This document shows positions 55,760-62,932 of a stretch of DNA of 64,000 nt, piece after piece. Each line of letters opens with the position of its first letter. Position 1 is the first letter of the stretch. This DNA comes from Paracoccus limosus (GTDB taxonomy: Bacteria > Pseudomonadota > Alphaproteobacteria > Rhodobacterales > Rhodobacteraceae): positions 62,001-126,000 of the forward strand of contig NZ_WMIF01000009.1 of the NCBI RefSeq assembly GCF_009711185.1, read 5' to 3'. The notes under the pieces are model-generated. The model had not been told where the DNA came from, did no database searches, and saw only the letters and a list, made by a program, of their open reading frames with translations. Position numbers and translations under genes: made by a program.

Positions 55760-56335
55760 TCAGGGGCGGGTGCCGGGTGCTGCGGGTTCGGGCGTGACGC
55801 GCTGCAAGGGCAGGCCGGCATCGCCCCAGGCATCGGCGCCGCCCGGAAACCAGTAGAGCCGGCTGTAGCCCGCGCCATGCAGCCGTTTCAGCGTATTCCA
55901 GCTGACCCAGCAATCGACCTTGCAAAAGACCACGATCTGGCGCGCCTTGTCACCGCCGGTCAGCCGGGCAAGGTTGCGGTCCAGATAGTCCTGCTGCCAT
56001 GGCTCTAGCCGGCCCCAGCCCACCACCGGCAGCCAGACTGCGCCCGGCAGGCTGTCGCGATGCTCGGGTGTCAGGAAGCGGCCATCGGGCGCCAGCTGAT
56101 AGTTCCGCAGCCCCATCACATCCAGCAGCAGTGCGCCCTGCCCGGCCAGCGCCTGCACCTCGGCGATGCCGATGCTGCGCGCGCCCGGCGCGGTGTCGGG
56201 CACCGGGGCGCGGTATTGCGTCATGCGATAGCCCTGCGCATCGAACAGCGGCTCGGCCCTGCCGGGCGCTGGCGCAAGCACCGGCAGCAGCCCGGCCAGC
56301 AAAGCGGCAACAAGGGCAATTCGACCTTTGGACAA
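55760..56335 (-). CDS. PQQ-dependent catabolism-associated CXXCW motif protein (rhodanese-like)
   Basis: 191 residues with signal peptide (cleavage near GRA/EP, residue 27). The rhodanese-like fold has LLLDVMGLRN and the motif C138-K-V-D-C142-W-V-S-W-N that names the family, found next to PQQ alcohol dehydrogenases. The two cysteines could carry persulfide or form a disulfide in the periplasm. It is divergent from the SoxYZ-like gene with 115 bases between, and belongs to the same functional group. Confidence 0.85.
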   Translation of the reverse strand: MSKGRIALVAALLAGLLPVLAPAPGRAEPLFDAQGYRMTQYRAPVPDTAPGARSIGIAEVQALAGQGALLLDVMGLRNYQLAPDGRFLTPEHRDSLPGAVWLPVVGWGRLEPWQQDYLDRNLARLTGGDKARQIVVFCKVDCWVSWNTLKRLHGAGYSRLYWFPGGADAWGDAGLPLQRVTPEPAAPGTRP

Positions 56336-56450
56336 TTTTGCGCTCTGCCTCTTTCATGGAACCTGCCGGGACGGCACGACCGCCGGCAGCAGCATCCTAA
56401 CGGGCGGCGCGCACGTCACATATGCGACTGAAGTCGACAGGGAGAGGGCG

Positions 56451-57227
56451 ATGACGGTCATCATCTCGGACATGCTGCCCGGCGGCACGGCAGGGCTGAT
56501 CCAGCCCGCGACAGGCGATGCGGCGACCGGCGGCGATGCCTTCGACAGCGGCATGTGGCCCACGCATCGCGCCGAATATCTGGGCGCCGATGCGCCATGG
56601 CGGCAGGATCCGGCCATGGTTGTGCTGGCGCCGCGGGCGGCGGAAAACTCGGCCCATGTGCCCTTCGTCATCGATGCCACCGCCCTGCCCGGCGTGGTCG
56701 AGCGGATCGTGGTGACGGTGGATTACAGCCCCTTTGCCCATGCGCTGACCTTTCACCCCGGCCGCGCCCTGCCCTTTCTGGGCTTTGGCGTGAAATACGA
56801 GGTGGCGGGCGCGTTGCGCGCCTCGGCCCGGATCGGGGGTGAATGGCATGTCGGCGCGGCATGGGTCAGCGCGCTGGGGGGCGGCTGCAGCGCGCCCGCG
56901 GCGGTCCATGCCCGGCCCGACTGGCAGCAGGGCTTTGGCCAGATGCGCGGCCGGCTGTGGCAAAAAACCGGACGGCTGGTGGTCAGCATCCGGCATCCGC
57001 AGGACACCGGGCTGGCGGATGGCATCCCGGCGCATCACCTGACCGAGCTTGCGCTTTACGACGCCCAAGGCGCGCGGATCGCCAATCTGGAGCTGTTCGA
57101 GCCGCTTGAGGAAAACCCCACGCTGACCTTCGTGCTGCCGCCCGATCTGGCACGTCAGCCGGTCACCATCCGCTCCCGCGACAATCTGGGCGACAGCTTC
57201 ACCGGCACGGTCCGGCCCGACGCATGA
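56451..57227 (+). CDS. quinoprotein dehydrogenase-associated SoxYZ-like carrier
   Basis: 258 residues from MTVIISDMLPGG, with GGAGAGGG-type SD (GGAGAGGGCG) just upstream. Residues about 25-150 resemble SoxY, with the carrier cysteine C146 in ALGGGCSAPA matching the swinging-arm motif; residues about 160-258 resemble SoxZ. In sulfur oxidation SoxYZ holds sulfur intermediates on this Cys in the periplasm. I see no signal peptide here or in the longer in-frame sequence up to 56328, which is odd. Its stop overlaps the metallo-hydrolase start by 4 bases. Confidence 0.82.
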   Translation: MTVIISDMLPGGTAGLIQPATGDAATGGDAFDSGMWPTHRAEYLGADAPWRQDPAMVVLAPRAAENSAHVPFVIDATALPGVVERIVVTVDYSPFAHALTFHPGRALPFLGFGVKYEVAGALRASARIGGEWHVGAAWVSALGGGCSAPAAVHARPDWQQGFGQMRGRLWQKTGRLVVSIRHPQDTGLADGIPAHHLTELALYDAQGARIANLELFEPLEENPTLTFVLPPDLARQPVTIRSRDNLGDSFTGTVRPDA

Positions 57228-58192
57228 GGATGCGCGCGCCCCTGTCCCTGTCGCGTCGCCAGCTTCTGGGCAGCGCCACCGCCTGCCTGATTGCGCCGCT
57301 TTGCCCCGCGCGGGCGGCGGATCGCAACTATGAGCTGGCACCCGTTGAACGCGCCCCCGGCGTCTGGATGATCGAAGGCGCGCGCGAGGTGTTTTCGCGC
57401 CAGAACGGCGGCGCCATCGTCAATATCGCGCTGCTGGAAACCCCAAAGGGCGCCGTGGTCATCGACACCGGCTCGACCGGCGGCATGGGTGCGGCGATCC
57501 GCGCCTTTGCCGATCAGCGGCTGGGCGGGGTCGCCATGGTGCTGAACACCCACCACCACCCCGATCACTGGTTCGGCAATGCCGCCTTCGAGGATTGCCC
57601 GCTGCTGGCGCCCGCCCCTGCCATCGCGGCCTGCACGCAATATGGTGGCGATTTCGCGGCCTCGCTTTACGCCATCCTCGGCAGCTGGATGTCGGGCACC
57701 CGACCATTGCCCGCGCGCCAACCCACCGCCGAAGGCCCACTGGAGGTCGGCGGCCGCAAGCTCGTGTTGCGCCAGATGGCCGGGCATACCCTCGCCGATC
57801 TGGTGGTGATCGATCAGGCGACCGGCACGCTGATCGCGAGCGACATGCTGTTTCTGGACCGCGCGCCCAGCCTGCCCGATGCCGATTACGACAGATGGCT
57901 GGCCGGGCTGGATCAGCTGGCGCGGCTGTCGCCTTCGGGCACCATCCCCGGCCATGGTCCGTTTCACCGCGATGGCGCAGCCTTGGCGCAGACCCGCGCC
58001 TATCTGACCGCCACGCGCGCCCGGCTGGATCTGGCGGCGCAAACCGGGCTGACGCGAATCGAGGCGATGTCGGCGGGGCCGGCGCCCGAATTCGCCCATC
58101 TCGGCGCCAATCCCGAGGAATATATCCGCTCGGTCGTGCAGCGCTGGCCCGATCACGAAACCACCGCCCTGCCGGTGATCGGCGGGGCCTGA
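57224..58192 (+). CDS. quinoprotein relay system metallo-beta-lactamase-fold hydrolase
   Basis: 322 residues. SRRQLL (about 10-15) followed by a hydrophobic stretch and PARA/AD is a Tat-type signal, so the enzyme is exported folded. Zinc motif H110-x-H112-x-D114-H115 (THHHPDH), further ligands in MAGHTLAD and IPGHGP. Named only from its co-occurrence with SoxYZ-like carrier and PQQ dehydrogenases; it may act on a thiol-bound intermediate like glyoxalase II relatives. Coupled to the carrier gene. Confidence 0.85.
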   Translation: MRMRAPLSLSRRQLLGSATACLIAPLCPARAADRNYELAPVERAPGVWMIEGAREVFSRQNGGAIVNIALLETPKGAVVIDTGSTGGMGAAIRAFADQRLGGVAMVLNTHHHPDHWFGNAAFEDCPLLAPAPAIAACTQYGGDFAASLYAILGSWMSGTRPLPARQPTAEGPLEVGGRKLVLRQMAGHTLADLVVIDQATGTLIASDMLFLDRAPSLPDADYDRWLAGLDQLARLSPSGTIPGHGPFHRDGAALAQTRAYLTATRARLDLAAQTGLTRIEAMSAGPAPEFAHLGANPEEYIRSVVQRWPDHETTALPVIGGA

Positions 58193-58395: not shown

Positions 58396-59073
58396 ATGTT
58401 TCGCAAGCCCGGATCGCTCGCCGCCCCGCTCATCTTTGTCGCCGGGATGGCCTTTGCGCATGGCGACACCGCGCCGCGCGCCGTGGACACCACCGGCCTG
58501 CCGGATCTGCCCGAGGAAATGGCCACCGAAAACCCATGGCGCAATGCCGAGGGCGATCTGCTGTTCAAGGCGGTCGAGATCGGCGGCAAGGGCTTCAACA
58601 GCAACTGCGCGCGCTGCCACGGGCTTGAGGCGATCTCGGGCGGGCTCGCCCCCGACCTGCGCTTTCTGGAAGCCAATGACATGGGCGATGAATGGTTTCT
58701 GGACCGCATCCAGAACGGCTATGAACAGAACGGCGCGGTCAAGATGCCGCCCTTCAAGGGCATCCTCAGCCAGGAAGCGATGTGGGCGATCCGCACCTAT
58801 ATCGAGACCCGCCCCGATGCCGATGCGGTGACCGAACGCGCCAGCGACATCACCGCGCTGCGCGACCGCATCAAGGAATTGCCCGCCACCGCCAGCACCG
58901 ATGAGGTCGAGGTGGTCGCGGGTGAGCTCGACAAGCTCGGCAGCACCTTCGAGCCGCTGTCGGGCGCGCCGCGCACCATCACCCCCCTGCAACAGGCCGC
59001 GCATCTGCTGCGCACCGGCGTCAGCCACGCCCCGATGGCGGCCGAGATGGTCTCGGGGATGCTGCGCAACTGA
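58396..59073 (+). CDS. cytochrome c-550, PedF type
   Basis: 225 residues with a signal peptide ending near AFA/HGD (residue 21). One haem-c site C71-A-R-C74-H75, and MPPF near 118 supplies the axial Met. SQEAMWAIRTYIETRP follows, then a C-terminal extension (about 140-225) without haem sites. PedF-type cytochromes accept electrons from ExaA-type PQQ alcohol dehydrogenases in the periplasm, and ExaA is the next gene, 133 bases on. Gene-name transfer from Pseudomonas is by similarity only. Confidence 0.88.
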   Translation: MFRKPGSLAAPLIFVAGMAFAHGDTAPRAVDTTGLPDLPEEMATENPWRNAEGDLLFKAVEIGGKGFNSNCARCHGLEAISGGLAPDLRFLEANDMGDEWFLDRIQNGYEQNGAVKMPPFKGILSQEAMWAIRTYIETRPDADAVTERASDITALRDRIKELPATASTDEVEVVAGELDKLGSTFEPLSGAPRTITPLQQAAHLLRTGVSHAPMAAEMVSGMLRN

Positions 59074-59206: not shown

Positions 59207-61060
59207 ATGAATGCGCTTTTGAAGCTGACGGCGGCCAGCGCCATCGCACTCACCTGCGCCGGCGCGCTTTTCACGCCCGCTCAGGCCAAGGACGTGAGCT
59301 GGGACGACATCCTGAACGACAGCGAAACCACGAATGACGTGCTGATGTATGGCATGGGCACCAATGCCCAACGTTATTCGACGCTGACCCAGATCAACGC
59401 CGAGTCGGTCAAGCATCTGCGGCCGGCATGGGCGTTTTCCTTTGGCGATGAAAAGCAGCGCGGTCAGGAATCGCAAGCCATCGTGCATGACGGCGTGATC
59501 TATATCACCGGCTCATATTCCCGCATCTGGGCGCTGGACGCCAAGACCGGCAAGCGGCTGTGGAAATTCGAGGCGCGCCTGCCCGAAGACATCCGCCCCT
59601 GCTGCGACGTGGTGAACCGCGGCGCGGCGATTTACGGCGACAAGGTGTTCTTCGGCACGCTGGACGCCAGCATCTATGCACTGAACAAGGACACCGGCAA
59701 GGTCGTCTGGCGCAAGAAGTTCGAGGATCACAAGATCGGCTATACGATGACCGGCGCGCCGACCATCGTGAAGGACAAGGAAACCGGCCGCGTCATGCTG
59801 ATCCATGGCAGCTCGGGCGACGAATTCGGCGTGGTGGGCAAGCTTTATGCCCGCGACGTGGACACCGGCGAGGAAATCTGGATGCGTCCCTTTGTCGAGG
59901 GGCATCAGGGCAAGCTGGCCGGCAAGGACAGCACCATCACCGGCGATCCCAAGGCGCCGAGCTGGCCCAACACCCCCGATGGCAAGAAGGTCGAGGCCTG
60001 GAACCACGGCGGCGGCGCCCCCTGGCAATCGGCCAGCTATGATCTGGAAACCAACACGATCATCGTCGGCGCGGGCAACCCCGCCCCCTGGAACACCTGG
60101 GCACGCACGCCGGGCGACAGCCTTTACACCTCGGGTCAGGCCTATGTGAACCCGAAGGACGGCGAGCTGATCGGCTTCTACCAGCACACGCCGAACGACG
60201 CCTGGGACTTCTCGGGCAATAACGAGATCATCCTGTTCGACTACAAGGACAAGGATGGCAAGTCGCACCGCGCCGGCGCCCATGCCGACCGCAACGGCTT
60301 CTTCTATGTGACCGATATCGACGCGCTCTCGAAACGCGGTGGCGACATCAACCGGCCGACCGCGCTGCTGAATGCCTTCCCCTTCGTCGACGGCATCACC
60401 TGGGCCAAGGGCATCGACCTGAAGACCGGCCGCCCGATCGAGAACGAAGGCCAGCGCCCGCCGCTGCCCGAAAAGGGCGAGGACAAGGGCAAGACCATCG
60501 AAGTCTCGCCGCCGTTCCTGGGTGGCAAGAACTGGAACCCGATGGCCTACAGCAAGAAGACCGGGCTGTTCTACGTTCCCGCCAACCACTGGAAAGAGGA
60601 TTACTGGACCGAGAACGTCACCTATCAGGCCGGCGCCGCCTATCTGGGTCAGGGCTTCCGCATCAAGAAGCTCTACGAAGACCATATCGGCACGCTGCGC
60701 GCCTTTGACCCGGCCACCGGCGAGAAGAAATGGGAACACAAAGAGAAATTCCCGCTTTGGGCCGGTGCGCTGGCAACGGCAGGCGATCTGGTGTTCACCG
60801 GCACCTCGGACGGCTTCGTCAAGGCCTTCCACGCCGAGACCGGCGAGCAGCTGTGGGAGTTCAACACCGGCTCGGGGATCGTGTCGCAACCGATCACCTG
60901 GGAACTGGACGGCAAGCAATATCTGGGCATCGCCTCGGGCTATGGCGGCGCCGTGCCGCTGTGGGGCGGCGATATGGCGACGCTGACCACGCAGGTCAGC
61001 CAGGGCGGGTCGTTCTGGGTCTTCGAGATCCCGAATGAGCTGATCACTGCCGCGAAATGA
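59207..61060 (+). CDS. exaA: PQQ-dependent quinoprotein ethanol dehydrogenase, Ca-type (ExaA-like)
   Basis: 617 residues from MNALLKLTAASAIAL, with GGAGGAG upstream and a signal peptide cut after QAKA-like residue 27. Eight-bladed propeller. C132-C133 is the vicinal disulfide over PQQ; catalytic D334 in AWDFSGNNE is followed at +2 by S336 where lanthanide enzymes (XoxF, PedH) have Asp, so a Ca-dependent type is predicted. Long stretches such as IRPCCDVVNRGAAIYGDK match ExaA. It oxidises ethanol and other primary alcohols in the periplasm, passing electrons to cytochrome c-550. Confidence 0.93.
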   Translation: MNALLKLTAASAIALTCAGALFTPAQAKDVSWDDILNDSETTNDVLMYGMGTNAQRYSTLTQINAESVKHLRPAWAFSFGDEKQRGQESQAIVHDGVIYITGSYSRIWALDAKTGKRLWKFEARLPEDIRPCCDVVNRGAAIYGDKVFFGTLDASIYALNKDTGKVVWRKKFEDHKIGYTMTGAPTIVKDKETGRVMLIHGSSGDEFGVVGKLYARDVDTGEEIWMRPFVEGHQGKLAGKDSTITGDPKAPSWPNTPDGKKVEAWNHGGGAPWQSASYDLETNTIIVGAGNPAPWNTWARTPGDSLYTSGQAYVNPKDGELIGFYQHTPNDAWDFSGNNEIILFDYKDKDGKSHRAGAHADRNGFFYVTDIDALSKRGGDINRPTALLNAFPFVDGITWAKGIDLKTGRPIENEGQRPPLPEKGEDKGKTIEVSPPFLGGKNWNPMAYSKKTGLFYVPANHWKEDYWTENVTYQAGAAYLGQGFRIKKLYEDHIGTLRAFDPATGEKKWEHKEKFPLWAGALATAGDLVFTGTSDGFVKAFHAETGEQLWEFNTGSGIVSQPITWELDGKQYLGIASGYGGAVPLWGGDMATLTTQVSQGGSFWVFEIPNELITAAK

Positions 61061-61116: not shown

Positions 61117-61752
61117 ATGTCGAAACTGACCCCCATTCTGGCCGTGATGCTGGCCTGCGCCGGTGGAACGACCAGCGCCGGCCAGGTTGCGCCGCCCATC
61201 GCCTCCGGCGGCGGCTTTCCGATCATCGTCGATGAGCCCACCCCGCACGAGGGGCCGCTGGTCATCGGCGGCTGCGAGATCAAGCCCGGCGCCTCATGCC
61301 CCGGCGTCGATCTGCGTCATGCCGACCTGCGCGGGCTGAAGCTGAACGGCATCGACCTGAAAGGCGCCAAGCTGACGCGCGCGAATTTCTTTGGTGCCGA
61401 GCTGAAGGGCGCCGATCTGTCGGGCGCCGACCTGCGCGGCGCCAATCTGGAAATGGCGCAGATGCAGGGCGTGCATATGCGCGACGCCGATCTGACCGGG
61501 GCCAATCTGGATTACTCGCGCCTTGCGGGCGCCGATTTCTCGGGCGCGGATCTGACAGCCGCGACGCTGGAGGCCGCGACCGCGCATAAGGCGAAATTCG
61601 TCGGCGCCAAGTTCATCGGCGCCAATCTGATGGAGACCAAATTCTACAACGCCGATTTCGCCAATGCCACGCTGGAGGGCAATCACGCCCCCTATGCGAT
61701 CTGGGAAGGCGTGCATATGGACAATTGCCACGGATGCCCCGTCGATTGGTGA
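61117..61752 (+). CDS. exported pentapeptide-repeat protein
   Basis: 211 residues. A hydrophobic signal sequence (MSKLTPILAVMLACAGG) is followed by a short region with C53 and C61, then about 25 pentapeptide repeats of the A(D/N)Lxx type (residues 64-190: VDLRH ADLRG ... ADLSG ADLRG ANLEM), which form a right-handed quadrilateral beta-helix. Ends with CHGCPVDW. Pentapeptide proteins often mediate protein contacts. Coding next to exaA suggests a role at the dehydrogenase or membrane; the function is unknown. 24 bases after the exaA hairpin. Confidence 0.82.
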   Translation: MSKLTPILAVMLACAGGTTSAGQVAPPIASGGGFPIIVDEPTPHEGPLVIGGCEIKPGASCPGVDLRHADLRGLKLNGIDLKGAKLTRANFFGAELKGADLSGADLRGANLEMAQMQGVHMRDADLTGANLDYSRLAGADFSGADLTAATLEAATAHKAKFVGAKFIGANLMETKFYNADFANATLEGNHAPYAIWEGVHMDNCHGCPVDW

Positions 61753-62159
61753 TCGCCGCCATAGCCGCGGCGGGTCTGGGCATTGGCCCGGCCGCGCCGC
61801 GCGATCTGGAGGGCGCGCTGGCCGCCTGCCGCGCCATCGCGGCCGAGGCCGGGCGGCTGGCCTGCTATGACCGGCTGGTCGCACCGACGTCGCTGGCGCA
61901 TTTCGCGGGCAAGGGCAGCGCGGTCACCGCAGCCTTTACGCTGGACGGTCCGGCCCGGCTGGATTTCGCCAGTCAGGACGTGGTCATGGTGATCTATCTG
62001 CTGGATGCAGAGGGGGCGGTGGTGCAGAACCTGCACCGCGCCGGCGCGGGCGAGGGCTCGTTCCTGATCCGCCGGCCCGGCACCTACAGCATTCAGGTCA
62101 ATGCGACGGGCGAATGGCAGATCGAGGTCCTGCCCGAACCCGCTGCACCACAGGGGTGA
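61734..62159 (+). CDS. small exported hypothetical protein
   Basis: 141 residues from MPRRLVIAAIAAAGLGIGPAAP at 61734 (a TTG at 61725 is possible), overlapping the pentapeptide gene by 19 bases. Signal peptide, then ALAACRAIAAEAGRLACYDRL, a short Cys-x(n)-CYD segment known from many small exported proteins, and a beta-sandwich-like C-terminal part (FTLDGPARLDFASQD...RPGTYSIQVNATGEWQIEV). Likely periplasmic partner of the preceding genes. No family name is recalled. Confidence 0.68.
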   Translation: MPRRLVIAAIAAAGLGIGPAAPRDLEGALAACRAIAAEAGRLACYDRLVAPTSLAHFAGKGSAVTAAFTLDGPARLDFASQDVVMVIYLLDAEGAVVQNLHRAGAGEGSFLIRRPGTYSIQVNATGEWQIEVLPEPAAPQG

Positions 62160-62245: not shown

Positions 62246-62932
62246 ATGGCCCAACCCGCGCCCCGTGCCATTGCGGCACCCGGCTTTGTCACGGCGCTGA
62301 TCGTGGACGATCACCCGCTGTTTTGCGACGCGCTGGCCATGACCCTGACCGGGCTCGTGGGCATCCGCGAGGTCGAGACCGCCCGGACGCTGGAAACCGC
62401 CTTTCAGCATATCGCCCGGCAGGGCCGGCCCGATGTGCTGGTGCTGGACCTGAACCTGCCCGATGTGAACGGCGTCGATGGTGTGGTGCGCATGCGCCAG
62501 CAAAACCCGACGCTGCCGATCATCGTCGTGTCGTCGCTGACCGACCTGCGGGTGATCCGCGCCTCGTTGCAGGCCGGCGCCTCGGCCTTTCTGCCCAAGC
62601 ATGCCGAGCGCGAAGAGATCTGCGAGGCTTTCCTGACCATGGCGCGTGGCGAGCCGCATTCCAGCCGCCGCCTGCTCGACAGCACCGCAGCCGCCCCCTC
62701 GGACGAGGCGCTGCAACGCCTGTCGCAGCTGACCCGGCAACAGGCCTGCATCCTGCAACTGGTCTGTTCGGGGCTGATGAACAAGCAGATCGCCTATGAG
62801 ATGTCGATCGCCGAAACCACGGTCAAGGCGCATGTGACCGCGATCATGCGCAAGCTGGGCGTGCAAAGCCGGATGCAGGCGGTGCTGCTGGCGCAATCGG
62901 CCAGCTTCTCGGCCCTGTCGAAAGAGGGCTGA
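62246..62932 (+). CDS. LuxR-family response regulator (FlhR/AgmR-like)
   Basis: 228 residues from MAQPAPRAIAAPG, with AAGGAGGAG upstream. Receiver domain (about 14-130) with D21-D22, phospho-acceptor D68 in VLDLNLPD, and conserved Lys of FLPKHAE near 123; LuxR helix-turn-helix at about 160-220 (MNKQIAYEMSIAETTVKAHV). In Paracoccus FlhR and in Pseudomonas AgmR/ErbR control PQQ alcohol dehydrogenase expression. The next gene is a FIST-domain sensor, as in both of those systems. Confidence 0.88.
   Translation: MAQPAPRAIAAPGFVTALIVDDHPLFCDALAMTLTGLVGIREVETARTLETAFQHIARQGRPDVLVLDLNLPDVNGVDGVVRMRQQNPTLPIIVVSSLTDLRVIRASLQAGASAFLPKHAEREEICEAFLTMARGEPHSSRRLLDSTAAAPSDEALQRLSQLTRQQACILQLVCSGLMNKQIAYEMSIAETTVKAHVTAIMRKLGVQSRMQAVLLAQSASFSALSKEG

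What the first reader, a model, noticed from the sequence alone, without database searches (positions are those of the whole stretch)
55760..58192. SoxYZ-like carrier, metallo-hydrolase and CXXCW protein beside a PQQ ethanol dehydrogenase
Three proteins with sulfur-carrier or thiol chemistry signatures surround the PQQ alcohol dehydrogenase. Seen: C146 carrier motif, zinc HxHxDH motif, C138/C142-W motif. Known: these families are named only from co-occurrence with quinoproteins. Inference: they form a thiol-based relay that traps or passes an aldehyde or acyl intermediate made by ExaA, or matures the enzyme. This is the strongest candidate here for an undescribed system.
Basis: partly seen in the sequence, partly recalled or inferred. 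Interest (0 to 1): 0.62.

Follow-up and report, generated by a model that had tools for sequence, protein, structure and literature searches.

The report
Quinoprotein thiol-carrier module, calcium-enzyme variant
Three neighbouring genes in a Paracoccus-like genome make a known but still unexplained set of sulfur-chemistry proteins that travels with alcohol-oxidising enzymes, here in an unusual version tied to a calcium enzyme and with a carrier that seems to lack its own export tag.

Summary
In detail: a rhodanese-like C-x3-C-W protein (55760-56335, -), a fused SoxYZ-like carrier with a single Cys146 (56451-57227, +) and a metallo-beta-lactamase-fold hydrolase (57224-58192, +) precede cytochrome c550 PedF and an ExaA-type PQQ ethanol dehydrogenase. 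All three pass curated NCBIfam cut-offs, so the module is not undescribed; papers discuss it in Pseudomonas, Hyphomicrobium and symbionts, without a proven function. Co-occurrence is strong: among 299 Pseudomonadota genomes all 33 with an unbroken fused carrier hold a PQQ alcohol dehydrogenase, and all 30 with the C-x3-C-W protein hold the carrier. New here: the window belongs to one Paracoccus/Gemmobacter clade whose module sits with a calcium-type (D-x-S) dehydrogenase rather than the commoner lanthanide type; most of its carriers lack a recognisable signal peptide, the carrier stop usually overlaps the start of a Tat-type hydrolase, and one genome (Gemmobacter serpentinus) shows only the calcium enzyme. 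This argues against a lanthanide-only role. Most likely mechanism (inferred, about 0.4): a sulfur-clearing relay protecting the quinoprotein; aldehyde relay and maturation remain open. New variant of a known kind; interest moderate.

The parts
55760..56335 (-). [quoted passage not shown]
   Evidence: 193.4 bits, cut-off 128.05; invariant C138/C142/W143; rhodanese fold
56451..57227 (+). Fused SoxY-SoxZ-like thiol carrier (TIGR04557), 258 aa, single Cys146; no recognisable signal peptide
57224..58192 (+). Metallo-beta-lactamase-fold hydrolase (TIGR04558, SoxH-related), Tat-like signal SRRQLLG (motif judged by eye), start codon overlaps the carrier stop (ATGA)
58396..59073 (+). Cytochrome c550 PedF (by family the electron acceptor of the dehydrogenase)
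   Evidence: TIGR04494 179.8 bits, cut-off 122
59207..61060 (+). ExaA/PedE-type PQQ ethanol dehydrogenase, calcium type (D334-F-S336), vicinal Cys pair at 132-133
   Evidence: best solved match 1FLG, E 2.6e-302
61117..61752 (+). Pentapeptide-repeat protein (PedD-like position)
62246..62932 (+). LuxR-type response regulator, possible regulator of the cluster (longer ORF from 62114)
   Evidence: best model ErdR 153.8 bits, below its cut-off 390

Best explanation
This is a clade-specific, calcium-enzyme version of the conserved quinoprotein-associated thiol module. Shown by sequence and predicted fold: a SoxY-SoxZ fusion with one Cys at the place of the SoxY swinging arm, a rhodanese-fold protein with two conserved Cys, and a metallohydrolase with a seven-ligand site whose gene overlaps the carrier gene. 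Inferred: carrier and hydrolase form a complex that folds in the cytoplasm and is exported by the Tat signal of the hydrolase, as SoxZ is carried by SoxY (recalled). In the periplasm the rhodanese-like protein and the carrier Cys pick up sulfane sulfur or sulfite-like nucleophiles that would otherwise attack PQQ or the active-site disulfide of the dehydrogenase, and the hydrolase cleaves the adduct off the carrier. The function is thus protection or repair of the quinoprotein, not alcohol oxidation itself.
For: All three parts have sulfur-chemistry relatives: SoxY and SoxZ, rhodaneses including a metallo-beta-lactamase/rhodanese protein 3tp9, SoxH-related hydrolase families. Reactive residues are invariant and the metal ligands kept in 79-81 of 83 rows. 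The module was not seen without a PQQ dehydrogenase: 22 of 22 genomes in the order, 33 of 33 with an unbroken fused carrier in the phylum sample. A protecting role fits the weak mutant phenotype and the thiosulfate inhibition of methanol growth told in PMC12997753. Carrier-hydrolase complex: hydrolase directly downstream in 80 of 80 loci, ATGA overlap in 14 of 18 clade loci and the window; twin-arginine N-terminus on the hydrolase in 18 of 18 while only 4 of 19 clade carriers have a hydrophobic stretch.
Against: No sulfur compound was shown to bind. The window's genome has no SoxB over the cut-off and no split soxYZ match, so thiosulfate oxidation by Sox is not expected there. A general protector should be wanted by every PQQ dehydrogenase, yet 28 of 50 dehydrogenase-bearing genomes of the order lack it. 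17 further phylum genomes pass the carrier cut-off only with a stop inside the match; none of them is in the dehydrogenase list; I set them aside as presumably unfused SoxY and SoxZ without looking at them. Absence of a signal peptide rests on a hydrophobicity heuristic and on reading the frames; 4 of 19 clade carriers pass the threshold.
Confidence: 0.4

Rival explanations
1. Aldehyde/acyl relay: the carrier thiol traps the aldehyde made by the dehydrogenase as a thiohemiacetal, this is oxidised to a thioester, and the hydrolase releases the acid, much as in the glutathione/glyoxalase II route.
For: The next curated family after the two quinoprotein-relay families is hydroxyacylglutathione hydrolase GSH_gloB, though weak (26.8 bits, E 3e-6, about level with a class B beta-lactamase core), and seven metal-site residues are conserved. 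In the order the carrier tracks chiefly genomes with a XoxF5-like enzyme (18 of 19 against 4 of 31 others). PMC11237559 also argues for a carbon rather than sulfur role (passages).
Against: Does not explain the rhodanese-like protein. 27 of the 31 genomes with other PQQ dehydrogenases, which also make aldehydes, lack the module. Weak mutant phenotype in P. putida as told in PMC12997753.
Confidence: 0.25
2. Maturation factor: the trio forms or repairs the vicinal disulfide of the dehydrogenase, or helps insert PQQ or metal.
For: Proposed in PMC12997753; two conserved Cys in the C-x3-C-W protein; genetic linkage to the dehydrogenase.
Against: The vicinal Cys pair is present in 62 of 64 dehydrogenase-like proteins examined, with or without the module, and 28 of 50 dehydrogenase genomes lack the module. 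The lanthanide-specific form of this idea is contradicted by the calcium-type clade and by G156, where one dehydrogenase, calcium type, was found.
Confidence: 0.2
3. The window copy is a leftover: the genome has another carrier and C-x3-C-W protein elsewhere, and this copy has lost export and function.
For: Second carrier at G000:C1:165472 and second C-x3-C-W at C9:38558; no recognisable signal peptide on the window carrier.
Against: The reactive residues are kept, the layout recurs in 18 loci, and four of 18 clade genomes hold only this copy of the carrier.
Confidence: 0.05

Closest known systems
ped cluster genes PP_2666 / PP_2677 / PP_2678 of Pseudomonas putida KT2440 (PMC12997753, section 15 and passages read)
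   Same: The same three kinds of protein in one cluster with PQQ dehydrogenases, PedF and a pentapeptide protein
   Different: There carrier and hydrolase stand directly before the lanthanide enzyme PedH (gene order in the paper's table); here the only dehydrogenase in the cluster is calcium type, and the carrier lacks a recognisable signal peptide. The P. putida sequences were not compared here
SoxYZ-S2 and SoxYZ-S4 fusions with soxH, rhodanese and PQQ dehydrogenase or xoxF in lucinid symbionts (PMC11237559, passages read)
   Same: Fused carrier, SoxH-like hydrolase and quinoprotein in one locus; a role outside sulfur oxidation proposed
   Different: Other lineage; those carriers were not aligned with the window's here
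Canonical Sox carrier SoxYZ (solved: 2oxg/2oxh, 4uwq, 2nnc)
   Same: SoxY and SoxZ folds; Cys at the place of the swinging arm
   Different: Single fused chain, Cys internal (GGGCSAP) rather than in a C-terminal GGCGG (recalled); far below the true-SoxY and true-SoxZ cut-offs; no SoxB over the cut-off in the genome
Single-domain rhodaneses (GlpE 1gmx, Sud 1qxn, YgaP)
   Same: Fold, and Cys directly after a strand, before the active-site loop
   Different: A second Cys and a Trp in the loop (C-x3-C-W-x-S-W-N)
soxH by xoxF5 in a Roseobacter-group methylotroph and Rhodobacter sphaeroides (PMC5934484, one passage read)
   Same: SoxH-like gene beside a lanthanide methanol dehydrogenase
   Different: Seems to correspond to the second, XoxF-linked set of this genome, not to the window set

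Membership tests
TIGR04557 quinoprotein dehydrogenase-associated SoxYZ-like carrier | Score over the curated cut-off across the whole model | tested here: met
   155.6 bits against 140, model 1-226 of 226
TIGR04557 quinoprotein dehydrogenase-associated SoxYZ-like carrier | SoxY fold followed by SoxZ fold in one chain, with a Cys at the junction | tested here: met
   AF2 model pLDDT 89.8; residues 33-146 to SoxY 2oxh_Y Z 11.7, rmsd 2.4, 108 aligned; 162-258 to SoxZ 1v8h Z 11.8, rmsd 1.9, 95 aligned; C146 invariant in 84
TIGR04557 quinoprotein dehydrogenase-associated SoxYZ-like carrier | N-terminal export signal, as seen in relatives (not part of the model) | tested here: inconclusive
   An uncharged 11-residue stretch with mean hydropathy of 1.9 or more before W36: 4 of 19 clade carriers (window not among them) against 56 of 64 ORFs of the other named loci and 31 of 34 of the order set. 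No signal-peptide predictor was at hand
TIGR03865 PQQ_CXXCW | Score over cut-off and conserved Cys pair before Trp | tested here: met
   193.4 bits against 128.05; spacing is C-x3-C-W, invariant in 65
Rhodanese fold | Fold match over most of the domain | tested here: met
   pLDDT 91.3; GlpE 1gmx Z 11.6, rmsd 2.1, 103 aligned; 3tp9 Z 11.7, rmsd 2.1, 104 aligned
Rhodanese fold | Sulfurtransferase activity | not testable with these tools
   needs an assay
TIGR04558 SoxH-related zinc metallohydrolase 1 | Score over cut-off and metal ligands | tested here: met
   337 bits against 300; H110, H112, D114, H115, H188, D207, H244 kept in 79-81 of 83 aligned rows
TIGR04558 SoxH-related zinc metallohydrolase 1 | Zinc content and hydrolase activity | not testable with these tools
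   needs protein
Canonical Sox thiosulfate oxidation | True SoxY / SoxZ scores and SoxB in the genome | tested here: not met
   SoxY 22.1 against 125, SoxZ 20.8 against 76; best SoxB match in G000 123.6 against 550
Calcium-type ExaA/PedE ethanol dehydrogenase | Ser two residues after the catalytic Asp (Asp in lanthanide enzymes; PMC5487730, one passage; PMC10409515, passages) | tested here: met
   D334-F-S336; best solved match 1FLG
Lanthanide-dependent XoxF/PedH dehydrogenase | D-x-D | tested here: not met
   D-x-S in the window enzyme

The most novel reading that the evidence does not exclude
In one Paracoccus/Gemmobacter clade the carrier lost its own export signal and became a Tat hitch-hiker on the metallohydrolase made from the overlapping next gene, giving a fixed carrier-hydrolase enzyme that services a calcium ExaA; the module as a whole is then a metal-independent caretaker of quinoproteins, not a lanthanide accessory.
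Probability: 0.45. Interest if true: 0.55.

Novelty: new variant of a known kind. Interest (0 to 1): 0.42.

Why it matters
About half of the PQQ alcohol dehydrogenase genomes in the phylum sample carry the module (33 of 67), yet I found no paper that shows what it does. The calcium-type clade offers a simpler test bed: one genome (Gemmobacter serpentinus HB-1) shows a single PQQ alcohol dehydrogenase and a single set, so the function could be tested without lanthanide switching or a second copy. It also weakens the published suggestion that the genes become relevant only under lanthanide-using conditions.

Tried and rejected
Lanthanide-only role: rejected as a general rule. The window clade pairs the set with a D-x-S enzyme: 16 of 18 loci with an unbroken dehydrogenase frame, and L126 and L127, whose frames are split, show the same motif in their pieces. 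G156 shows one dehydrogenase, of that type. Outside the clade the lanthanide type prevails: over all 80 loci 29 hold only D-x-D, 17 only D-x-S, 12 both, 4 could not be classed as a whole, 18 none within the fetched flanks.

Vicinal-disulfide formation as the sole role: weakened, since 62 of 64 dehydrogenase-like proteins have the Cys pair, with or without the module (three duplicate loci, L051, L057 and L120, were left out of that count).

Part of a thiosulfate Sox system: rejected for this genome. In the order, genomes with the module have a further, split soxYZ-like match more often (19 of 22 against 71 of 127, Fisher 0.008, from the match counts), so a link to sulfur lifestyle is not excluded.

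Degenerate carrier: considered because the N-terminus looked odd, held unlikely as related carriers share it and form one branch (12 of 12 rows, SH-aLRT 100; quick tree of 84 rows). L151, a Paracoccus bin with broken frames, probably belongs to the clade and was left out of the 18.

A first signal-peptide heuristic looked only at Met starts and took internal Met residues in several clade rows; it is replaced, which does not depend on the start.

Sequence search of the hydrolase against solved structures found nothing at 1e-5. The Foldseek list for the carrier is mostly antibody-like folds with low TM-scores and was read only for its SoxY and SoxZ rows. PMC7391723 holds none of the terms sought. 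Fisher values treat genomes as independent, which they are not.
Full report
What is there. The three ORFs are real and at the stated coordinates. From ATG 56451 the carrier is 258 aa with a single Cys, C146, in GGGCSAP; the minus-strand protein has C138-x3-C142-W143; the hydrolase has H110-x-H112-x-D114-H115. NCBIfam places them in TIGR04557, TIGR03865 and TIGR04558, each over its curated cut-off. Downstream are cytochrome c550 PedF (58396-59073), a PQQ alcohol dehydrogenase (59207-61060), a pentapeptide-repeat protein and a LuxR-type response regulator. The dehydrogenase is closest among solved structures to the quinoprotein ethanol dehydrogenase 1FLG and carries Ser336 two residues after Asp334, the calcium-type residue; in PedH the position is Asp (PMC5487730, one passage).

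Folds. The AF2 model of the carrier (pLDDT 89.8) matches SoxY over 33-146 (2oxh_Y Z 11.7, rmsd 2.4, 108 aligned) and SoxZ over 162-258 (1v8h Z 11.8, rmsd 1.9, 95 aligned); a profile search agrees (SoxY 4uwq_B E 1.7e-19, SoxZ 4uwq_C E 1.5e-08). C146 falls at the end of the SoxY part, where SoxY has its swinging-arm Cys (recalled). The C-x3-C-W protein (pLDDT 91.3) has a rhodanese fold (GlpE 1gmx Z 11.6; 3tp9, a beta-lactamase plus rhodanese protein, Z 11.7). C146 and nine other columns are invariant in 84 carriers; C138, C142, W143 and ten others in 65 C-x3-C-W proteins. The seven metal-site residues are kept in 79-81 of 83 aligned hydrolase rows.

Co-occurrence. In 149 genomes of the order (all of one family by their codes) the carrier is over its cut-off in 22, the C-x3-C-W protein in exactly the same 22, and the PQQ methanol/ethanol dehydrogenase in 50, which include all 22. 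In 299 genomes of the phylum, 50 pass the carrier cut-off; 17 do so only with a stop inside the match and were set aside as presumably unfused pairs without a closer look (none of the 17 is in the dehydrogenase list), leaving 33 with an unbroken fused carrier. All 33 lie among the 67 dehydrogenase genomes; the 30 C-x3-C-W genomes all lie among the 33, and G185, G387 and G399 have a carrier without it. The hydrolase family is too broad for such a count: over its cut-off in 5 of 149, while 16 others of the 22 have a 144-191 bit match and G123 only 123 bits. In 80 named loci the hydrolase lies directly downstream of the carrier in 80; a C-x3-C-W gene is within the fetched flanks in 48, a dehydrogenase in 62. 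The loci were found by the carrier, the best 80 of 278, so these shares describe carrier loci only.

Which dehydrogenase. In the order, 18 of 19 genomes with a XoxF5-like enzyme (motif TPHDEWD[YF]DG; the label is recalled) have the module against 4 of the 31 other dehydrogenase genomes (Fisher 7e-9, not corrected for kinship; G014 is the exception). The four are G053, G103, G122 and G128, whose hydrolase, like the window's, passes TIGR04558. Across the 80 loci the lanthanide-type D-x-D prevails outside the window's clade. The window's enzyme is the only D-x-S among 64 dehydrogenase-like proteins examined in the order.

The clade. Eighteen loci (L121-L138; records of Paracoccus, Gemmobacter and Pseudogemmobacter, and one titled Enemella, an actinobacterium, likely misassigned) share the window's set: C-x3-C-W (17 of 18, not L131), PedF, carrier, hydrolase, D-x-S dehydrogenase (split in L126 and L127), pentapeptide protein. 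In most of them PedF precedes the carrier, unlike the window, L121 and L126. The carriers form one branch (12 of 12 rows used, SH-aLRT 100, quick tree). Most lack a recognisable signal peptide: in 10 of 18 the reading frame opens 11 codons or fewer before the first start (read), and only 4 of 19 (L122, L124, L132, L135; not the window) have an uncharged hydrophobic 11-residue stretch before W36, against 56 of 64 carrier ORFs of the other named loci and 31 of 34 of the order set. The hydrolase has a twin-arginine N-terminus in 18 of 18 and in the window, and the carrier stop overlaps its start as ATGA in 14 of 18 and in the window. I infer a carrier-hydrolase complex exported by Tat. This is one evolutionary event, so the pairing of signal loss with the switch to a calcium enzyme cannot be tested statistically.

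Whole genomes of the clade. Seventeen of 18 also hold a XoxF5-like D-x-D enzyme; G156 (L128, Gemmobacter serpentinus HB-1) shows one dehydrogenase at E 1e-100 or better, the D-x-S one in this cluster (completeness of that assembly is not told). Four genomes (G150, G152, G156, G157) show one carrier at E 1e-30 or better, in the calcium cluster; G159 has its only C-x3-C-W gene by the other dehydrogenase, so parts may be shared. The window's genome has two carriers and two C-x3-C-W genes, a MxaF-like (D-x-A), a XoxF5-like and the ExaA-like enzyme. It has no SoxB over the cut-off; nor have G039, G094 and G156.

What is known. PMC12997753 (section 15 and passages read) describes the trio in P. putida, tells of minimal RB-TnSeq effects and offers disulfide or cofactor stabilisation of lanthanide enzymes, or protection of PQQ from sulfur nucleophiles. 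PMC11237559 (passages) describes SoxYZ fusions with soxH, rhodanese and PQQ or xoxF dehydrogenases in symbionts and speculates on protecting methanol dehydrogenase from thiosulfate. PMC11582611 (passages) notes the ensemble in Hyphomicrobium as alcohol catabolism. PMC12826043 (passages) lists the CXXCW protein as raised, with ExaA, PedF and Pqq proteins, on overexpression of a sigma factor in Azospirillum. PMC6548844 (one passage) reports two soxYZ fusions in Methylophaga. The listings of searches showed no paper that tests the function directly, and none that I opened speaks, in the passages seen, of a signal-less carrier; the library lacks most subscription journals.

Judgement. Identity and co-occurrence are firm. 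Function is open: sulfur clearing 0.4, aldehyde relay 0.25, maturation 0.2. What this work adds is the calcium-type, mostly signal-less, gene-overlapping variant, which argues against a lanthanide-only role and points to a clean test organism.

Noticed in passing
   Followed up: partly
L093 (G014): A XoxF5-like dehydrogenase in a genome without carrier or C-x3-C-W protein over the cut-offs: the one exception among 19.
   Followed up: no
L137: Record titled Enemella evansiae (an actinobacterium) carries a Paracoccus-type cluster; probably contamination or a misnamed record.
   Followed up: no
L126, L127, L151, L153: Frames split inside dehydrogenase, carrier or hydrolase in single records; sequencing errors or decaying copies.
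   Followed up: no
G000:C1:179118-180884: A further PQQ-domain dehydrogenase (630 aa, strong PF01011 but weak TIGR03075 score) about 13 kb from the second carrier of the window's genome; kind not determined.
   Followed up: no
window 61725-62159: Short ORF after the pentapeptide gene with a weak match to a type VI secretion-associated family (TIGR03360, 19.5 bits, cut-off 124.2); function unclear.
   Followed up: no
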